Assembly (NCBI RefSeq): GCF_001971585.1
Contig: NZ_CP019323.1
Coordinates: 672,053-736,052, forward strand
Length of the DNA stretch: 64,000 bases
Source: Companilactobacillus allii
GTDB lineage: Bacteria > Bacillota > Bacilli > Lactobacillales > Lactobacillaceae
Reading direction: 5' to 3'
Shown here piece after piece: positions 28,470 to 34,539 of this stretch (positions within the stretch are counted from its first letter, which is position 1; the number at the start of each line of letters is the position of its first letter). Both the position numbers and the translations under genes were made by a program. Under the pieces are notes generated by a model. The model was not told where the DNA came from. It saw nothing but the letters and a program-made list of their open reading frames with translations, and did no database searches.

Positions 28470-29776
28470 TGTATATCTCCTTTCAAAATCACATATTGCA
28501 AATGAAATACGTTGTCACGTTCACTATTTTGAATCAGTAAGTTAGGGTAGCGTTTCTTGATTTCTTGGATATTTGATAATCCGAATCCAGAATGATCCTT
28601 TTTGGTTGAATAGCCTACCTGATTGATCGAATCAATATTTTCAGCTTCAGAGACAGTGTTGTCGATTATAAAAGTTACCTGTTTAGTCTCATTGATAATG
28701 GCTAGTTGAATATTTCCATTATCTTGCTTCTTAACTTCATCGATTGCATTGTCGATGGCAATACCCAACAATCGAACTAGGTCAAAGACATTGATAGGGG
28801 AATCATCAATAATATAATGGCATTCAAAAGTACATTCTATGTTTTCTTGATTGATCTTATTCAACTTGCTGATGAAAAGACTCTTCAAATAAGGGTTTTG
28901 AATATTATTCAAGTCTTTGTATAGCTTCATTGAGACATTATTGAAATAGTTATTGGAGTAGTTTTCGAACTTATCAAGTGAAGCATTCCATTCATCATTT
29001 TGCTTTGAGTCAGCAATAGTTCTTAGACTTAGTAGCATATTCTCATAATCATGTTTGAACTTTCGCAGATTTAGCTGGTCAATTTCTAATTGATCTGTAT
29101 ATGTCTTGAGATTCTTTAATTGTTCTTGGGATAATTGTTGTTGATAGATTGTCTTTTGTCGTTTGGTTTCTAGTAAGAAAATCAAAAGAAGCACAATTAA
29201 TTGGAGTACAACGAAGAATAAAATACCGATCAAAAACTTGCGGTAGATAGCAAATCTATGGATGAAGTTCATGAAAATCGATAAGACGATGAAGAAGTAA
29301 CTCAGTAATAATACTGGTATAGGGGAGTTATTGGTATTTATGAAGCGACTGATATGTAATTTACGATATAGTAGTACCACAATAGCTGAAAGAACTAGTT
29401 CAAGACCGCTGCTAATGGCAGTGAAGGCGAATCCTTGAATATTTGTGGATGAAACAAACGGTATCAAAATAGCAGACATTAAAATGTCTACTATATATAT
29501 AGTTATCGCTGTCGTGATTGCACTACTCAATAAGAAGTAATTACGCTTTCTTTGCCAGTTGAATATGAGATACAAGCCAATCACAAAAATCAAATAACTC
29601 CAGTCATCGACCAAATAATCAGTGATCGCAGTGATCACAAATAAAATGGCTATTAAGACAGACTTAATTGGATTAAGTTGTAATTTGTCGTTATATATCA
29701 AAAAGAAAATTCCAAATGTTATTAACCAAGACAGAGTCAATCCCAATACAAATGCTCCAGTGTTAACGTAGATCAT
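28466..29776 (-). CDS. Peptide-sensing histidine kinase, HPK10 (AgrC/PlnB) type
   Basis: 436 residues from ATG 29776 behind GGGGGG. Six to seven membrane segments fill residues 1-205; the phosphorylated His is in KFKHDYENMLLSLR; the GHKL ATPase follows with LLGIAIDNAIDEVKK (N box) and GFGLSNIQEI (G box). Such kinases sense peptide pheromones. No AgrB/AgrD pair and no transporter are adjacent, so the signal is unknown. Confidence 0.9.
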   Translation of the reverse strand: MIYVNTGAFVLGLTLSWLITFGIFFLIYNDKLQLNPIKSVLIAILFVITAITDYLVDDWSYLIFVIGLYLIFNWQRKRNYFLLSSAITTAITIYIVDILMSAILIPFVSSTNIQGFAFTAISSGLELVLSAIVVLLYRKLHISRFINTNNSPIPVLLLSYFFIVLSIFMNFIHRFAIYRKFLIGILFFVVLQLIVLLLIFLLETKRQKTIYQQQLSQEQLKNLKTYTDQLEIDQLNLRKFKHDYENMLLSLRTIADSKQNDEWNASLDKFENYSNNYFNNVSMKLYKDLNNIQNPYLKSLFISKLNKINQENIECTFECHYIIDDSPINVFDLVRLLGIAIDNAIDEVKKQDNGNIQLAIINETKQVTFIIDNTVSEAENIDSINQVGYSTKKDHSGFGLSNIQEIKKRYPNLLIQNSERDNVFHLQYVILKGDIQ

Positions 29777-29875
29777 CACAATCCCCCCACTCTTACTTAA
29801 GGATACAGTAAGAATCAGGTTAGTGAAATAGTTATAAATCTAATATAACTATTTAAATTTAGCATATTTTGAAAA

Positions 29876-30685
29876 TCAATCATGTTGTTCATGCCAAGCT
29901 TTGATTTGAGCTAGTCGGTCTTTGAAGCGGTTCTCATTTCCCTGTTCAGTTGGAGCATAATATTCATGTCCTTCTAGAGATGGTGGCATGGTTTTCATTG
30001 TGGTCAGTTTATCTTTAGCGTAATGTGCCAGTTCGTAATCCTTACCATATCCCAAGTCCTTCATCAGCTTGGTAGGTGCATTACGTATTTGTAAAGGAAC
30101 AGGGTCATTGACGGTTTCTTTGACATCTTTAGCTGCAGCAAGTCTGGCTTTGTAAATGGCATTAGACTTTGGAGCTAGCGATAGATAGGTCACAGCTTCA
30201 ACCAAATGAACGTCACATTCAGGCATACCGATGAATTGGCAAGCTTGAAAAACATTGATGGTTAGATTGAGAGCATTAGTATCAGCCAGACCGATATCTT
30301 CACTCGCGAATCTAACTAAACGACGTGCTATGTAAAGTGGATCTTCTCCACCTTCAAGCATTCGAGACAGCCAATAGATAGCAGCGTCGACGTCACTATT
30401 TCGCATGGATTTGTGTAATGCCGAGATAATATTGTAGTGTTCTTCACCATTCTTATCGTATAATACGAACTTTTTGGTAATGAGTTGGCTGAGGTCAGCC
30501 ATATTTACTAGAGTTCGCTCATCATTCTTGTCTCCATTAAGGATGGCCATTTCCAGTGTGTTCAAGGCTGATCTGGCATCACCATCCGCAAAGTTGGCAA
30601 TGGCTTGAATCTCTTCATTGCCAATCACAATATTTTGCTTTCCAAAACCATCAGGATTACTCAATGCATTGTTAATTAATTTAAT
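29876..30685 (-). pseudogene. rarA: rarA, C-terminal part (interrupted by an IS200/IS605 element)
   Basis: Codes for the last 269 residues of a RarA/MgsA-type AAA+ ATPase: FADGDARSALNTLEMAIL (sensor 2), then LSRMLEGGEDPLYIARRLVR and the tetramerisation region with FKDRLAQIKAWHEQ at the end. It is in frame with the N-terminal part at 32699-33208; joining the two gives 439 residues, the usual length. The break is between KDI and IKLINNALSNPDG. RarA acts at stalled replication forks. An internal ATG lacks a good ribosome site. Confidence 0.9.
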
Positions 30686-30739
30686 TAAAAACTTGGCAGA
30701 AATCTCCTGATTTTAATCAGGTAGATGAATGCCCTAAAC

Positions 30740-31180
30740 TTAGTGTCGCAAGTCACTTTTCTTTTGGCTTTCGATATAACGTTCAACAATATCTTTACTC
30801 ATATTTCCGAGTGTACTCATATAGTAACTATGTGACCACAAATGACCGCCCAAGAACTTTTGCTGTTTCACTTCAGGATGCTTTTCGAAAAACATACGTG
30901 CAGAGCCACCCTTGAAAGCCTTAACAACGTTGGTCGGTGCATATTTTGGTTTAAAGCTAATAAGAAGATGTATATGGTCTGGCATAACCTCCATACGCTC
31001 GATAGTGACCTCATTGAGATCGGCAATTCGCCGAAGGATAATTTCCATGTCATTTACCAATTGCGGTGTTGAAAATACAGTATTTCGGTATTTAGTGACC
31101 CATATCAAGTGAAAATGGAAATTGTAGACGTAGTTACGTTCGTGAATAATATCATCTAAACGGTCATTCTTTTTTCTCAT
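30740..31180 (-). CDS. tnpA: IS200/IS605 Y1 transposase TnpA
   Basis: 146 residues from ATG 31180, which has AAGGAG upstream; the longer frame is a read-through of the promoter region. The HUH motif is in VMPDHIHLLISF, and the catalytic Tyr is in VERYIESQ near the C-terminus. WVTKYRNTVF is typical of the family. It cuts and joins single strands at the element's hairpin ends. It appears intact, so the element may still move. Confidence 0.95.
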   Translation of the reverse strand: MRKKNDRLDDIIHERNYVYNFHFHLIWVTKYRNTVFSTPQLVNDMEIILRRIADLNEVTIERMEVMPDHIHLLISFKPKYAPTNVVKAFKGGSARMFFEKHPEVKQQKFLGGHLWSHSYYMSTLGNMSKDIVERYIESQKKSDLRH

Positions 31181-31278
31181 ATGCTTGCTCCTTGAAGTGC
31201 TTATTAATAGGCTTAATACGTATAATTTAATACTCATATGTTATAATTAGTATAACACAACTAAGGAGGTGAATTAAT

Positions 31279-32541
31279 ATGACTAAAACGATGGCACAGC
31301 TATCCTATCATTATGGCGTTAAAGTGCGTATTTTCCCAGCTACTGAACAAAAACGATTGATCAAACGCAATAGTGATGCGAGTCGCTTTATCTACAACGA
31401 AATGAATGGCATGAATCGGGAATTATTCATGTTACGTCAGGTGAAGATTCCCATCACAATGGTTCAGCAACGTATTCAGACACTAGAACAGCGATTGAAA
31501 TCACCATCAACGGGGATTTCAAATAGTCATGGCTGGCTTAATGACCATGATTTAGATAGCCTGATGAAGGCTAATGCTATCAAAAACTATCGTTCTGCTT
31601 GGAACCTTTTTCGTAAGGTTCATAGATCAGGCACACCAGTCTTCCATAAAAAGCGAACCGAGCAAAAATATCAAACCTCATGCCTGTATGCTAGTAAGCT
31701 AAATAATCCTAGTATGGCCAATGGTAGTGTTCGATTGCTCGACCAACAACATATACAATTACCCAAGTTGGGAACTTTACGATTCAAAGGAATGCCAACT
31801 AAGTTACTTAATCGGCAAGATGATGTGCGTATTGGAACGACAACTATCTCAATGGACGCCACTGGTCGGTATTATGTCTCGATGCAACTAGCTTCTGAAC
31901 GTCCATTTGTAAATAAATTAAGTAATAATACAGCCGTATCTATTGGTATTGACTTAAATATTGATAATTTTCTAACTGATTCCGATGGCAACATCGTTGC
32001 CAATCCACATTATTATCGTGCTATTAAGGGTAAATTGGCTAGCGCACAACGTAAGCTTTCTCGACGAGCACTACGTGCTAAAAAAGAGCATCGGCCATTA
32101 CGTGACGCCAAAAATTATCAGAAGCAACGTGAGATTGTCGCAATTATCCAACTCAAAGTAGCCAATCAACGTAAAAACTTTTTACACCTCGTGTCCACCA
32201 CACTTATCAAGAACCACGATTTGGTAGTGGCAGAGGAATTACGGAGTAAGAATATGTTACGAAATCACGCACTAGCAATGAACATTGCTGATGTGGGTTG
32301 GCGCACATTGTTAGGCATGTTGTCCTATAAAGCTGATATGTACGGGAAAAGGTTTATCACAGTTAACCCTCGAAATACCACCCAGACATGTCATGATTGC
32401 GGTTTTGTCATGGGTGCTGGATCAACTAATAAGCTCACACTAGCTGACCGAGAATGGACGTGTCCACACTGTGGTACTTACCACATACGTGATTGTAATG
32501 CAGCTAAAAATATTTTGGCAAAAGGTTTAGTATCACTGTAA
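31279..32541 (+). CDS. tnpB: RNA-guided nuclease TnpB
   Basis: 420 residues, full length, behind AAGGAGGTG. RuvC residues are present: Asp in SIGIDLNIDNFLTDSDG, Glu in LVVAEELRSKNM, and Asp in HIRDCNAAKNILAKG; the zinc finger is TCHDCG...WTCPHCG. TnpB uses an RNA from the right end of its element to cut DNA carrying the element's TAM and flank. All key residues are kept, so activity is plausible. Confidence 0.95.
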   Translation: MTKTMAQLSYHYGVKVRIFPATEQKRLIKRNSDASRFIYNEMNGMNRELFMLRQVKIPITMVQQRIQTLEQRLKSPSTGISNSHGWLNDHDLDSLMKANAIKNYRSAWNLFRKVHRSGTPVFHKKRTEQKYQTSCLYASKLNNPSMANGSVRLLDQQHIQLPKLGTLRFKGMPTKLLNRQDDVRIGTTTISMDATGRYYVSMQLASERPFVNKLSNNTAVSIGIDLNIDNFLTDSDGNIVANPHYYRAIKGKLASAQRKLSRRALRAKKEHRPLRDAKNYQKQREIVAIIQLKVANQRKNFLHLVSTTLIKNHDLVVAEELRSKNMLRNHALAMNIADVGWRTLLGMLSYKADMYGKRFITVNPRNTTQTCHDCGFVMGAGSTNKLTLADREWTCPHCGTYHIRDCNAAKNILAKGLVSL

Positions 32542-32698
32542 ATATTCAGTCCGTCTGGCAACCTGCGGACTCTAAAGGCTTTGGTAATTAGCACGTAAGA
32601 CCTGCTTGCAGGCAATCGCTGTATCTAAGCAAATTGTGGTCGTTGCACCAACGGTGTAATTCTCACAAGCTTCCGACTTTAGTCGGGAGTGGTTGACC
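32542..32698 (+). ncRNA. Predicted omega RNA (right-end RNA) of TnpB
   Basis: The ~157 bases between the tnpB stop and the element end contain several inverted repeats (for example GTCCG...CGGAC, CCTGCTTGCAGG) and finish with the right-end hairpin. In this family the scaffold overlaps the tnpB 3' end and the guide is the first bases of flanking host DNA, here GATGTCTTTTTGCTCT (32699-32714) in rarA. The 5' border is not determinable. Confidence 0.7.
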
Positions 32699-33208
32699 GA
32701 TGTCTTTTTGCTCTAGTGGCTTAAGGACAAATACCTTACATCTAGATAATAAAGCCGAGTTGATTTCAAAGGATGGATTCTCTGTCGTAGCTCCTATGAG
32801 GATAATGCTGCCACGTTCAACATATGGTAAGAAAGCATCTTGTTGCGCCTTGTTGAATCGATGAATCTCATCGACAAAGACTATTGTTCGTTGACCAATT
32901 TCACGGTCAAGTTCAGCCTGTTTCATTATTTTTTTGATTTTGCTAATACTGCTGTCCACAGCACTAAAACTCAGAAACTTTGATTTGGTTTGATTTGCGA
33001 TTATTTCTGCTAGCGTAGTTTTACCCACACCAGGTGGTCCCCAAAAGATCATAGAAGATACTTGATCGTTTTCAATGATTTCTCTTAGAAGTTTACCTTG
33101 ACCCAATAAGTGTTGTTGTCCGACAAAGTCCTCTAAACTTCTCGGACGTACTCGACTAGCTAGTGGTGTATTTTCGCTTTGATTTGAGAAAAGTGATTCC
33201 TGTTTCAT
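32699..33208 (-). pseudogene. rarA: rarA, N-terminal part (interrupted)
   Basis: Covers residues 1-170 of RarA: Walker A FWGPPGVGKTTLAEII, Walker B IVFVDEIHRFNKAQQ, sensor 1 LIGATTENPSFEINSALLSR, then the element interrupts after LKPLEQKDI. The open frame runs ten further codons into the element. ATG 33208 follows GAGGT. A truncated ATPase domain is unlikely to function alone. Confidence 0.9.
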
Positions 33209-33347
33209 CAATAAAGTACCTCACTTTAAATATAGATGTACTAAATGATAAACCATAACGTTACGTCATGGTCAAGTTAAGGGAAAATTTGAGGTAAACT
33301 TGAATTATTAAAGAATGAAAAATTAAGTTCACCAGGAGGTATATATC

Positions 33348-33623
33348 ATGAACTGGCTAAAGGGTTTCGCAATTTCTAGTTATATCCCAGATACGTGGAA
33401 GATAGAATTTAGGTCTAGATATGAAGCACATGCATATTACGACTCTGTAATACATTATTTTGATGATAGATTAGGCAGAATAACTGTTAGTAATAATGGC
33501 TGGTATATATGGACTAAAATACCAAAGAATAAGTTTGAGGATGCTTTTAATGAATTTATGGCAAAACAAAACATTTCTAAGGATGAATATTCAATTGAAT
33601 TTATTCTGGTTAGGGGATACTGA
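33348..33623 (+). CDS. Small protein, paralogue of the gene at 35098
   Basis: 91 residues, ATG behind CAGGAGG. It shares length and pattern with the protein at 35098: IPDTWKIEF versus IPTTWIVQF, AHAYYDSVIHYFDDRLGRIT versus AHNYYRDSIAKFDDDLGTVT, and FMAKQNISKDEYSIE versus FMAKAKIADSEYSVE. No membrane segment or known domain. The two copies flank a set of immunity-like and membrane genes, so a role linked to bacteriocins is possible but unproven. Confidence 0.6.
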   Translation: MNWLKGFAISSYIPDTWKIEFRSRYEAHAYYDSVIHYFDDRLGRITVSNNGWYIWTKIPKNKFEDAFNEFMAKQNISKDEYSIEFILVRGY

Positions 33624-33677
33624 GCTCCATTTTAATTTTGAATGTACATTTCATATATTGTTTAAGATGTGAAACCT

Positions 33678-33720
33678 AGCCATTCAGGACATTTCCAGTC
33701 CTCAATGGGCTCTTTGTTTT
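33678..33720 (+). terminator. Terminator after the first 91-residue gene
   Basis: AGCCATTCAGGAC pairs with GTCCTCAATGGGCT around ATTTCCA, then CTTTGTTTT. Confidence 0.8.
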
Positions 33721-33754
33721 AAAATAACTTCAGTAGTTAATTTTTGGAGGATAA

Positions 33755-34108
33755 ATGTTGAATAATAGAGATAATGCTAAACAATATATTCATGATTTGT
33801 ACAATATGCTTAATAAGGAATCAGATAAGTCATCTCACATGTTAAATATCACCGATGTTTTGTTACAGGTCTATTCAAAAATTGATAAGGCTAAGAATCC
33901 TGAAGCATTAATCGATCGTTTGGCCAAATATATATACAGTGAGGGAATGGCTGGTAAGATTCACCTCAAAAAAGAAGAGGAAGCCTTGTTGATGGAGTTG
34001 GGAACAATTGGCCAAAAGGCTGGATTGAATGGAGCTAATTATGCTGACTTCTCAGATAAGTCATATTTCTACAGTATTTTTGATAACAATAAGATGCCAA
34101 TAAGATAA
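33755..34108 (+). CDS. Bacteriocin immunity protein, enterocin A-immunity type
   Basis: 117 residues, soluble and mostly helical, ATG after GGAGG. The pattern AKQYIHDLYNMLNKE, then LLQVYSKIDKAKNPEALIDR and AKYIYSEGMAGKIHLKKEEE matches the four-helix EntA_Immun family, which protects producers from class IIa bacteriocins by blocking the mannose-PTS receptor. No structural bacteriocin gene is recognised beside it, so it may serve as an orphan defence gene. Confidence 0.7.
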   Translation: MLNNRDNAKQYIHDLYNMLNKESDKSSHMLNITDVLLQVYSKIDKAKNPEALIDRLAKYIYSEGMAGKIHLKKEEEALLMELGTIGQKAGLNGANYADFSDKSYFYSIFDNNKMPIR

Positions 34109-34245
34109 TCCAATGCATATCTTGAATCCTTTATATTTTTGAACAAGATTCTTTGTTCAAGAGTATAAATAACGTGATTCAGGATATTTTTTTATGTTCC
34201 GGGTTATTTGATAATAAAATACTTAGTAGAGGGAGTGTTCAATAT

Positions 34246-34539
34246 ATGAATGAAAAGAAATTATTTAGTGAGATAAATAGAGCCTGTGCCAATCCTGAGA
34301 TCGAAAGAGATATTGAAATAAGGAGTAGTTTGTTAAAATTTGCTCGTCAACTTGAGGATGGAACTAATTACAAGTTGATCTGTGTGAGATTGAGCAATTA
34401 TATTTCGTTCTATCTAGCATCACACTGGCTACGTGCACCACAAGCCTTATTGGATTTGGGCCAAGATATCAAAGATGATGCTGATGAGTATCGTGGTGTA
34501 ACATCTGGTGATGTTTTAGTTGATGGCATATTAAGTTAG
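34246..34539 (+). CDS. Second immunity-like helical protein
   Basis: 97 residues from ATG 34246 with GAGGGAG upstream; an extension from TTG lacks a ribosome site. Helical, slightly acidic, no membrane segment: ERDIEIRSSLLKFARQLEDG, LSNYISFYLASHWLRAPQAL. Size and helix pattern resemble EntA-type immunity proteins, with weaker similarity than its upstream neighbour. Confidence 0.5.
   Translation: MNEKKLFSEINRACANPEIERDIEIRSSLLKFARQLEDGTNYKLICVRLSNYISFYLASHWLRAPQALLDLGQDIKDDADEYRGVTSGDVLVDGILS

What the first reader, a model, noticed from the sequence alone, without database searches (positions are those of the whole stretch)
29876..33208. rarA split by an intact TnpB element that should target the healed allele
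Removing 30686-32698 restores a 439-residue RarA exactly. The left flank TTTAAT is the likely TAM and the guide would be the right flank GATGTCTTTTTGCTCT. An excised, intact rarA would carry both, so TnpB could cut it and force copying back of the element. The strain is probably RarA-deficient while the element stays.
Basis: partly seen in the sequence, partly recalled or inferred. Interest (0 to 1): 0.65.

Follow-up and report, generated by a model that had tools for sequence, protein, structure and literature searches.

The report
Jumping gene splits a spare repair gene
A common bacterial jumping element that carries its own RNA-guided cutting enzyme has landed, probably recently, inside a second copy of the DNA-repair gene rarA; the insertion is real, but another rarA gene in the same chromosome is intact and the proposed self-preserving mechanism is already known.

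Summary
An IS200/IS605 element with intact-looking tnpA and tnpB interrupts a rarA gene on the minus strand. Right ends of 83 related copies and joined flanks of related insertions put the element at 30685-32697, not 30686-32698. The target/TAM is therefore TTTAA, the guide starts CGATGTCTTTTTGCTC, and the restored residue is Val, as in Companilactobacillus kedongensis, whose intact protein is also 439 aa. The right end has a covarying RNA scaffold, so the inferred guide runs into rarA and an excised allele would carry TAM plus target. The resident copy's guide match follows TTGAC, which should spare it. This is the published TnpB homing model; cleavage was not tested.

The main interpretive error is 'RarA-deficient'. 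The split gene is a second RarA (RarA2), found in 35 of 36 genomes of the genus searched, once broken. The RarA type found in every order relative searched is intact in this genome at C1:2259183, with uspA downstream. The insertion looks recent: no stops, and a change ratio like the sister species. Verdict: ordinary IS605 insertion; new member of a known kind.

The parts
32698..33208 (-). 5' half of the split rarA paralogue (rarA2), AAA ATPase core; bases 32698-32713 also serve as the predicted TnpB guide/target
   Evidence: ATG at 33208 by the joined translation
29876..30684 (-). 3' half of rarA2: AAA C-terminal and MgsA_C domains
   Evidence: (PF16193, PF12002)
30680..30684 (+). TTTAA: TnpA target and predicted TnpB TAM, host DNA left of the element
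   Evidence: 28 of 43 left ends TTTAA, 9 of 43 TTCAA; C. kedongensis reads TTTAAC here on the same strand
30685..32697 (+). IS200/IS605-family element, 2013 bp, tnpA and tnpB divergent
30706..30721 (+). left-end subterminal hairpin CCTGATTTTAATCAGG
   Evidence: the same or a variant in relatives listed
30740..31237 (-). tnpA, Y1 HUH transposase (true start possibly nearer 31180, inference)
   Evidence: TnpA chain 2xm3, E 3.7e-29; motif names HUH/tyrosine recalled
31279..32541 (+). tnpB, 420 aa; D225, E319, D405 and two CxxC pairs present
32549..32697 (+). predicted omega-RNA scaffold ending in hairpin 32669-32690 and GTTGAC (32692-32697)
   Evidence: 25 of 40 pairs with changes on both sides
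32698..32713 (+). predicted 16-nt guide CGATGTCTTTTTGCTC, inside rarA2
   Evidence: position after GTTGAC; guide length taken from ISDra2

Best explanation
A full IS200/IS605 element of a type common in lactobacilli inserted 3' of a TTTAA in the second rarA paralogue (rarA2) of a Companilactobacillus, splitting it after residue 173. Shown by sequence: element ends, in-frame empty site, intact motifs of TnpA and TnpB, a conserved and covarying right-end RNA scaffold, an intact RarA elsewhere in the genome. Inferred from characterised relatives: TnpA excises the element as a single-stranded circle; the omega-RNA from the 3' end of tnpB and the right end carries about 16 bases of rarA2 as guide; TnpB cuts an excised or uninserted rarA2 (TTTAA + target) and repair from a sister copy restores the insertion. 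The resident copy should not be cut because its guide match follows TTGAC rather than TTTAA. The strain should lack intact RarA2 but not RarA. The confidence given is for the anatomy and for the element being built to work so; that TnpB is at work in this strain now I put at about 0.7.
For: Element identity and motifs. Ends: 83 right ends with a free base after GTTGAC/T; left ends TTTAA/TTCAA; this cut restores DIVKLI as in C. kedongensis; in L110 it joins a 401-codon frame that aligns in one piece (4-399) with a plasmid 'phage tail tip lysozyme', junction at 217; in L163 a PnuC that aligns from residue 1 to 248 with L. reuteri PnuC; in L162 a YfcC-like carrier aligned from residue 1 or 2 with two plasmid records, only about 12 residues lying left of the junction. 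The right flank of L159 occurs without an element in an Enterococcus gilvus plasmid as AATTTAATAGAG. RNA: 95.5% of cells paired against 82.1% shuffled and 35-43% slid. Two RarAs. Recent: 9 amino-acid and 32 synonymous polarised changes on the window branch against 11 and 35 on the sister branch.
Against: No expression, excision or cleavage data. One genome per species was searchable, so no empty or excised allele of this species was seen; the C. kedongensis site differs from the guide at 7 of 16 bases and would hardly be a target. Frame length alone does not settle the cut: among 39 related copies, joined frames of 500 or more bases on both sides were 2 with the TTTAA cut (window, L110), 1 with the TTTAAT cut (L090) and 0 with a third control cut; at 150 bases 3, 2 and 1. 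The L090 frame fuses, by my reading of its translation, two neighbouring genes. The Pfam matches of the joined L162 and L163 proteins lie right of the junction. The single-sequence fold of the scaffold is only modestly better than shuffles (z -1.47, 20 of 200 as good). In the E. gilvus site only the last seven bases to the left are shared.
Confidence: 0.88

Rival explanations
1. One reading: element 30686-32698, TAM TTTAAT, guide GATGTCTTTTTGCTCT, healed residue Ile.
For: Joined frame is open; a T follows the five-base target in the 38 of 43 left ends that fitted the search pattern (the pattern itself required it); L090 has its longest joined frame with this kind of cut.
Against: 32698 would have to be element DNA, but that position is free in 83 relatives; C. 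kedongensis has TTTAAC; in L110 and L163 the TTTAA cut gives proteins that align across the junction with uninterrupted relatives; the Enterococcus right flank.
Confidence: 0.06
2. Same anatomy, but the insertion is silent: rarA2 was simply inactivated and TnpB plays no part in keeping it. (Overlaps with the anatomy of the best explanation.)
For: No activity data; rarA2 can be lost (broken in G004, not found in G034).
Against: Motifs and both ends intact, covarying RNA; insertion recent.
Confidence: 0.3
3. The insertion is harmless because the element is removed from RNA (IStron-like) or the two halves work as a split protein.
For: The 3' half has a TTG-started frame soon after the junction and lies downstream of tnpA on the same strand.
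Against: No Rfam match at E up to 1 over 29000-34500, group I introns included; the 5' half ends in element-encoded residues after residue 173.
Confidence: 0.03

Closest known systems
ISDra2 (Deinococcus radiodurans), IS200/IS605
   Same: Y1 TnpA, TnpB with RuvC triad, RNA guide from the right flank, donor-joint targeting model (PMC8612924, passages); right end TTGAC (recalled for ISDra2)
   Different: TAM here TTTAA instead of TTGAT; tnpA and tnpB divergent rather than overlapping; host and target gene
Sulfolobus islandicus IS605-type TnpB7 (PMC11043419, passages)
   Same: TTTAA TAM; guide starts directly after the conserved right-end motif; the element's own TTCAC context is not cut, as TTGAC here should not be
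   Different: Archaeal; right-end motif UUCAC rather than GUUGAC
Lactobacillus-group IS605 elements, e.g. Ligilactobacillus ubinensis L073 (81% TnpB identity)
   Same: Gene order, both ends, target, RNA scaffold
   Different: Insertion site, hence guide
RarA/MgsA AAA+ ATPases (PDB 3pvs, 8g28)
   Same: Sequence of the split gene's N-terminal half and of the intact paralogue; domains
   Different: The split gene falls in a separate group from the RarA type found across the order

Membership tests
IS200/IS605 insertion sequence | Y1 HUH transposase TnpA | tested here: met
   NF033573 140 bits over cut-off 55; alignment to TnpA chain 2xm3
IS200/IS605 insertion sequence | Subterminal hairpins, insertion 3' of a short AT-rich target, no target duplication | tested here: met
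   joined frame needs no duplicated bases
IS200/IS605 insertion sequence | Strand-specific single-stranded excision and insertion | not testable with these tools
   needs experiment
RNA-guided TnpB nuclease | RuvC D/E/D and zinc-finger residues | tested here: met
   D225, E319, D405 and CxxC pairs; NF040570 297 bits over 100; the triad's identity is recalled
RNA-guided TnpB nuclease | omega/reRNA from right end with guide from flank | tested here: inconclusive
   structure and covariation support it; transcript not seen
RNA-guided TnpB nuclease | TAM-dependent cleavage of the empty site | not testable with these tools
   TAM inferred from left flanks only
IStron | Group I intron in the element | tested here: not met
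   no Rfam match at E up to 1
RarA, the type found across the order | Groups with order-wide RarA rows; uspA downstream | tested here: not met
   the split gene is in a separate group of 34 rows (100/100); the gene with uspA downstream is L065:3612-4982

The most novel reading that the evidence does not exclude
By landing in a recombination/fork-restart ATPase, the element alters the very repair that copies it back, so that the TnpB lock and loss of RarA2 reinforce each other and act as a reversible switch of an accessory RarA.
Probability: 0.03. Interest if true: 0.6.

Novelty: new member of a known kind. Interest (0 to 1): 0.2.

Why it matters
It gives a precise, testable TnpB guide and TAM in a Companilactobacillus and corrects a likely misreading: the strain keeps another, intact RarA. 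The presence of a second RarA in 35 of 36 genomes of the genus searched is the less expected point, and a natural rarA2 disruption would allow its role to be tested. If TnpB does hold the insertion in place, it illustrates how a selfish element can keep an accessory repair gene switched off.

Tried and rejected
Rejected: RarA deficiency; TTTAAT as TAM; IStron; old decayed insertion. Led nowhere: a conspecific empty site (one genome per species; C. kedongensis was the nearest of those searched); L. salivarius plasmids, where 4 of 33 records with the left flank were opened for this: three (L188, L190, L191) carry the insertion and the badger plasmid L189 has TTTAA followed by different DNA; 6S RNA beside the intact rarA was not detected. 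dS between window and C. kedongensis rarA2 is saturated, so no dN/dS is given. L128 (C. baiquanensis, endonuclease III-like by my reading) gives an open joined frame that seems to lack some codons; not counted. L090: see evidence against.

Paper searches: for an IS605/rarA link one paper was listed (PMC11844463; title and start of abstract seen, not opened). For two RarAs in lactobacilli, one search listed 10 papers and one search listed 10 of 70; of these I opened only PMC8414754 (passages), and by titles and abstract starts I recognised no other as being about a bacterial rarA paralogue. Unopened papers could still mention either.

Full report
Check of the observation. Reading the window and its frames shows tnpA on the minus strand (30740-31237) and tnpB on the plus strand (31279-32541) between two minus-strand frames. 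Pfam gives AAA (and RuvB_N) for the 5' frame, AAA_assoc_2 and MgsA_C for the 3' frame, Y1_Tnp for tnpA and OrfB_IS605 plus Cas12f1-like_TNB for tnpB; NCBIfam gives IS200/IS605 transposase and guided TnpB above their cut-offs. Removing 2013 bases gives a 439-codon open frame; several neighbouring cuts do the same. The element has one full copy in the own genome and a 71% partial relative at C1:601762; by Pfam models the genome holds three TnpB and one TnpA.

Exact ends. The nearest relative, C. kedongensis (G005; the identical place and score as G071, reached through L135), codes GAT ATT GTT AAA TTG at the site, i.e. TTTAAC on the plus strand, and its protein is also 439 aa. Among 83 distinct right ends (hits not reaching the end, duplicates, rows with N and one without a recognisable end dropped; some sit at shared sites, so not all are independent) the base after GTTGAC/T is A 26, T 24, G 17, C 16. 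Of 43 distinct left ends, 28 read TTTAA|T, 9 TTCAA|T, 1 TTAAA|T and 5 did not fit the pattern; the pattern required the T, so that count is partly selected. Of 86 sources given to a script, 39 had both ends recognised. Joined frames of 500 or more bases on both sides: 2 with the TTTAA cut (window, L110), 1 with the TTTAAT cut (L090), 0 with a third control cut; of 150 or more: 3, 2 and 1. Most of the 39 are uninformative. Stronger are joins that match uninterrupted proteins across the junction with the TTTAA cut: L110 aligns in one piece, 4-399 of 401, with a plasmid 'phage tail tip lysozyme' (38% identity), junction at 217; L163 aligns 1-248 of 260 with L. reuteri PnuC (45.6%), junction near 25; L162 aligns from residue 1 or 2 with YfcC-family proteins in two of ten listed records, but only about 12 residues lie left of its junction. 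Pfam matches of the last two lie right of the junction. The right flank of an L. salivarius insertion (L159) occurs without an element in an Enterococcus gilvus plasmid as AATTTAATAGAG; only the seven bases AATTTAA are shared to the left. Hence element 30685-32697, target TTTAA.

The guide RNA. 49 of the 83 right ends were aligned. The consensus fold has 40 pairs, 25 with changes on both sides. 95.5% of cells pair (shuffled mean 82.1%) and the covariation score is 0.400 (mean 0.152); slid versions give 35-43% and 0.05-0.09. The structure was derived from the same alignment, which favours it. The window's single sequence folds only modestly better than shuffles (z -1.47; 20 of 200 as good). The scaffold ends at 32697, so the guide would be CGATGTCTTTTTGCTC. 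A scan of the own genome for TAM plus 16 guide bases with up to three mismatches found the insertion's own right end (preceded by TTGAC) and one other site with three mismatches; the reversed control pattern also gave one match. The C. kedongensis site differs from the guide at 7 of 16 bases.

TnpB and TnpA. D225, E319 and D405 are invariant in all nine aligned sequences, the window's included, and align with D, E and D of an ISDra2-like TnpB chain in PDB (that these are the nuclease residues is recalled). TnpA aligns with TnpA chain 2xm3 over the PDHIHLL and YIESQ stretches (motif meaning recalled).

Which RarA. A search of 60 genomes, own included, with the 5' half finds a close relative (67% or more) in 35 of 36 genomes of the genus (broken in G004; missing in G034) and in none of 24 outside it, all of which have a hit at 37-47%. 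Among named genomes, 6 of 8 non-Companilactobacillus lactobacilli have the close type; Ligilactobacillus ubinensis and Apilactobacillus ozensis do not. The own genome has an intact frame of the second type at C1:2259183 (L065:3612-4982), with, by my reading of the translations, rpsD upstream (one gene between) and uspA downstream; it matches PDB 8g28 at 1.2e-161, whereas the split gene's 5' half matches 3pvs best. rarA upstream and uspA downstream of 6S RNA is the arrangement reported for nearly all lactic acid bacteria (PMC8414754, passages), although 6S RNA itself was not detected there. In a tree of 55 RarA rows the split gene lies in a 34-row group (100/100); the own intact RarA lies in an 8-row genus group (100/100) beside the rows from other families (midpoint root, very long branches between the groups). 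So the strain is RarA2-split, not RarA-null.

Age. No stop in 439 codons; polarised against L. brevis and L. spicheri, the window branch has 9 amino-acid and 32 synonymous changes, the sister branch 11 and 35. This fits an insertion late on the branch.

Mechanism. That TnpB cuts the donor joint and repair reinstates the element was proposed for ISDra2 (PMC8612924, passages), is discussed as retention (PMC10278001, passages) and is reported as a gene drive in plasmids (PMC11870625, abstract and outline). TTTAA is an established TAM for Sulfolobus TnpB7, whose guide begins directly after the right-end motif and which does not cut its own TTCAC context (PMC11043419, passages). The window element fits this in the respects that sequence can show. 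Cleavage, excision and copying back remain inferred.

Verdict.

Noticed in passing
G000:C1:601.8-603.1k (L066:1940-4680): A second tnpB of the same kind, without tnpA and with a truncated right end, sits after a CRISPR locus that looks type II-A (cas1-, cas2- and csn2-like frames by my reading, and an array of 36-bp repeats).
   Followed up: partly
G000:C1:2341030-2341428 (L067:3261-4496, -): A third, more distant tnpB; no second TnpA is found in the genome; right end reads GTAGTTCAC.
   Followed up: no
window rarA2, L036, L154-L156: RarA2 of the window and C. kedongensis groups with Levilactobacillus and Bombilactobacillus (6 rows, 100/100) rather than with the other Companilactobacillus rows, suggesting transfer between genera.
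   Followed up: partly
G004:C1:1792321-1792844 (L069): The RarA2 orthologue of another species of the genus appears broken by in-frame stops or a frameshift, so RarA2 can be lost.
   Followed up: no
L170, L182, L183, L184: Four genomes of the genus carry a further, distant RarA-like protein.
   Followed up: no
L128 / L020 (C. baiquanensis): A related element lies in an endonuclease III-like repair gene (my reading); the joined frame is open but seems to lack some codons.
   Followed up: partly
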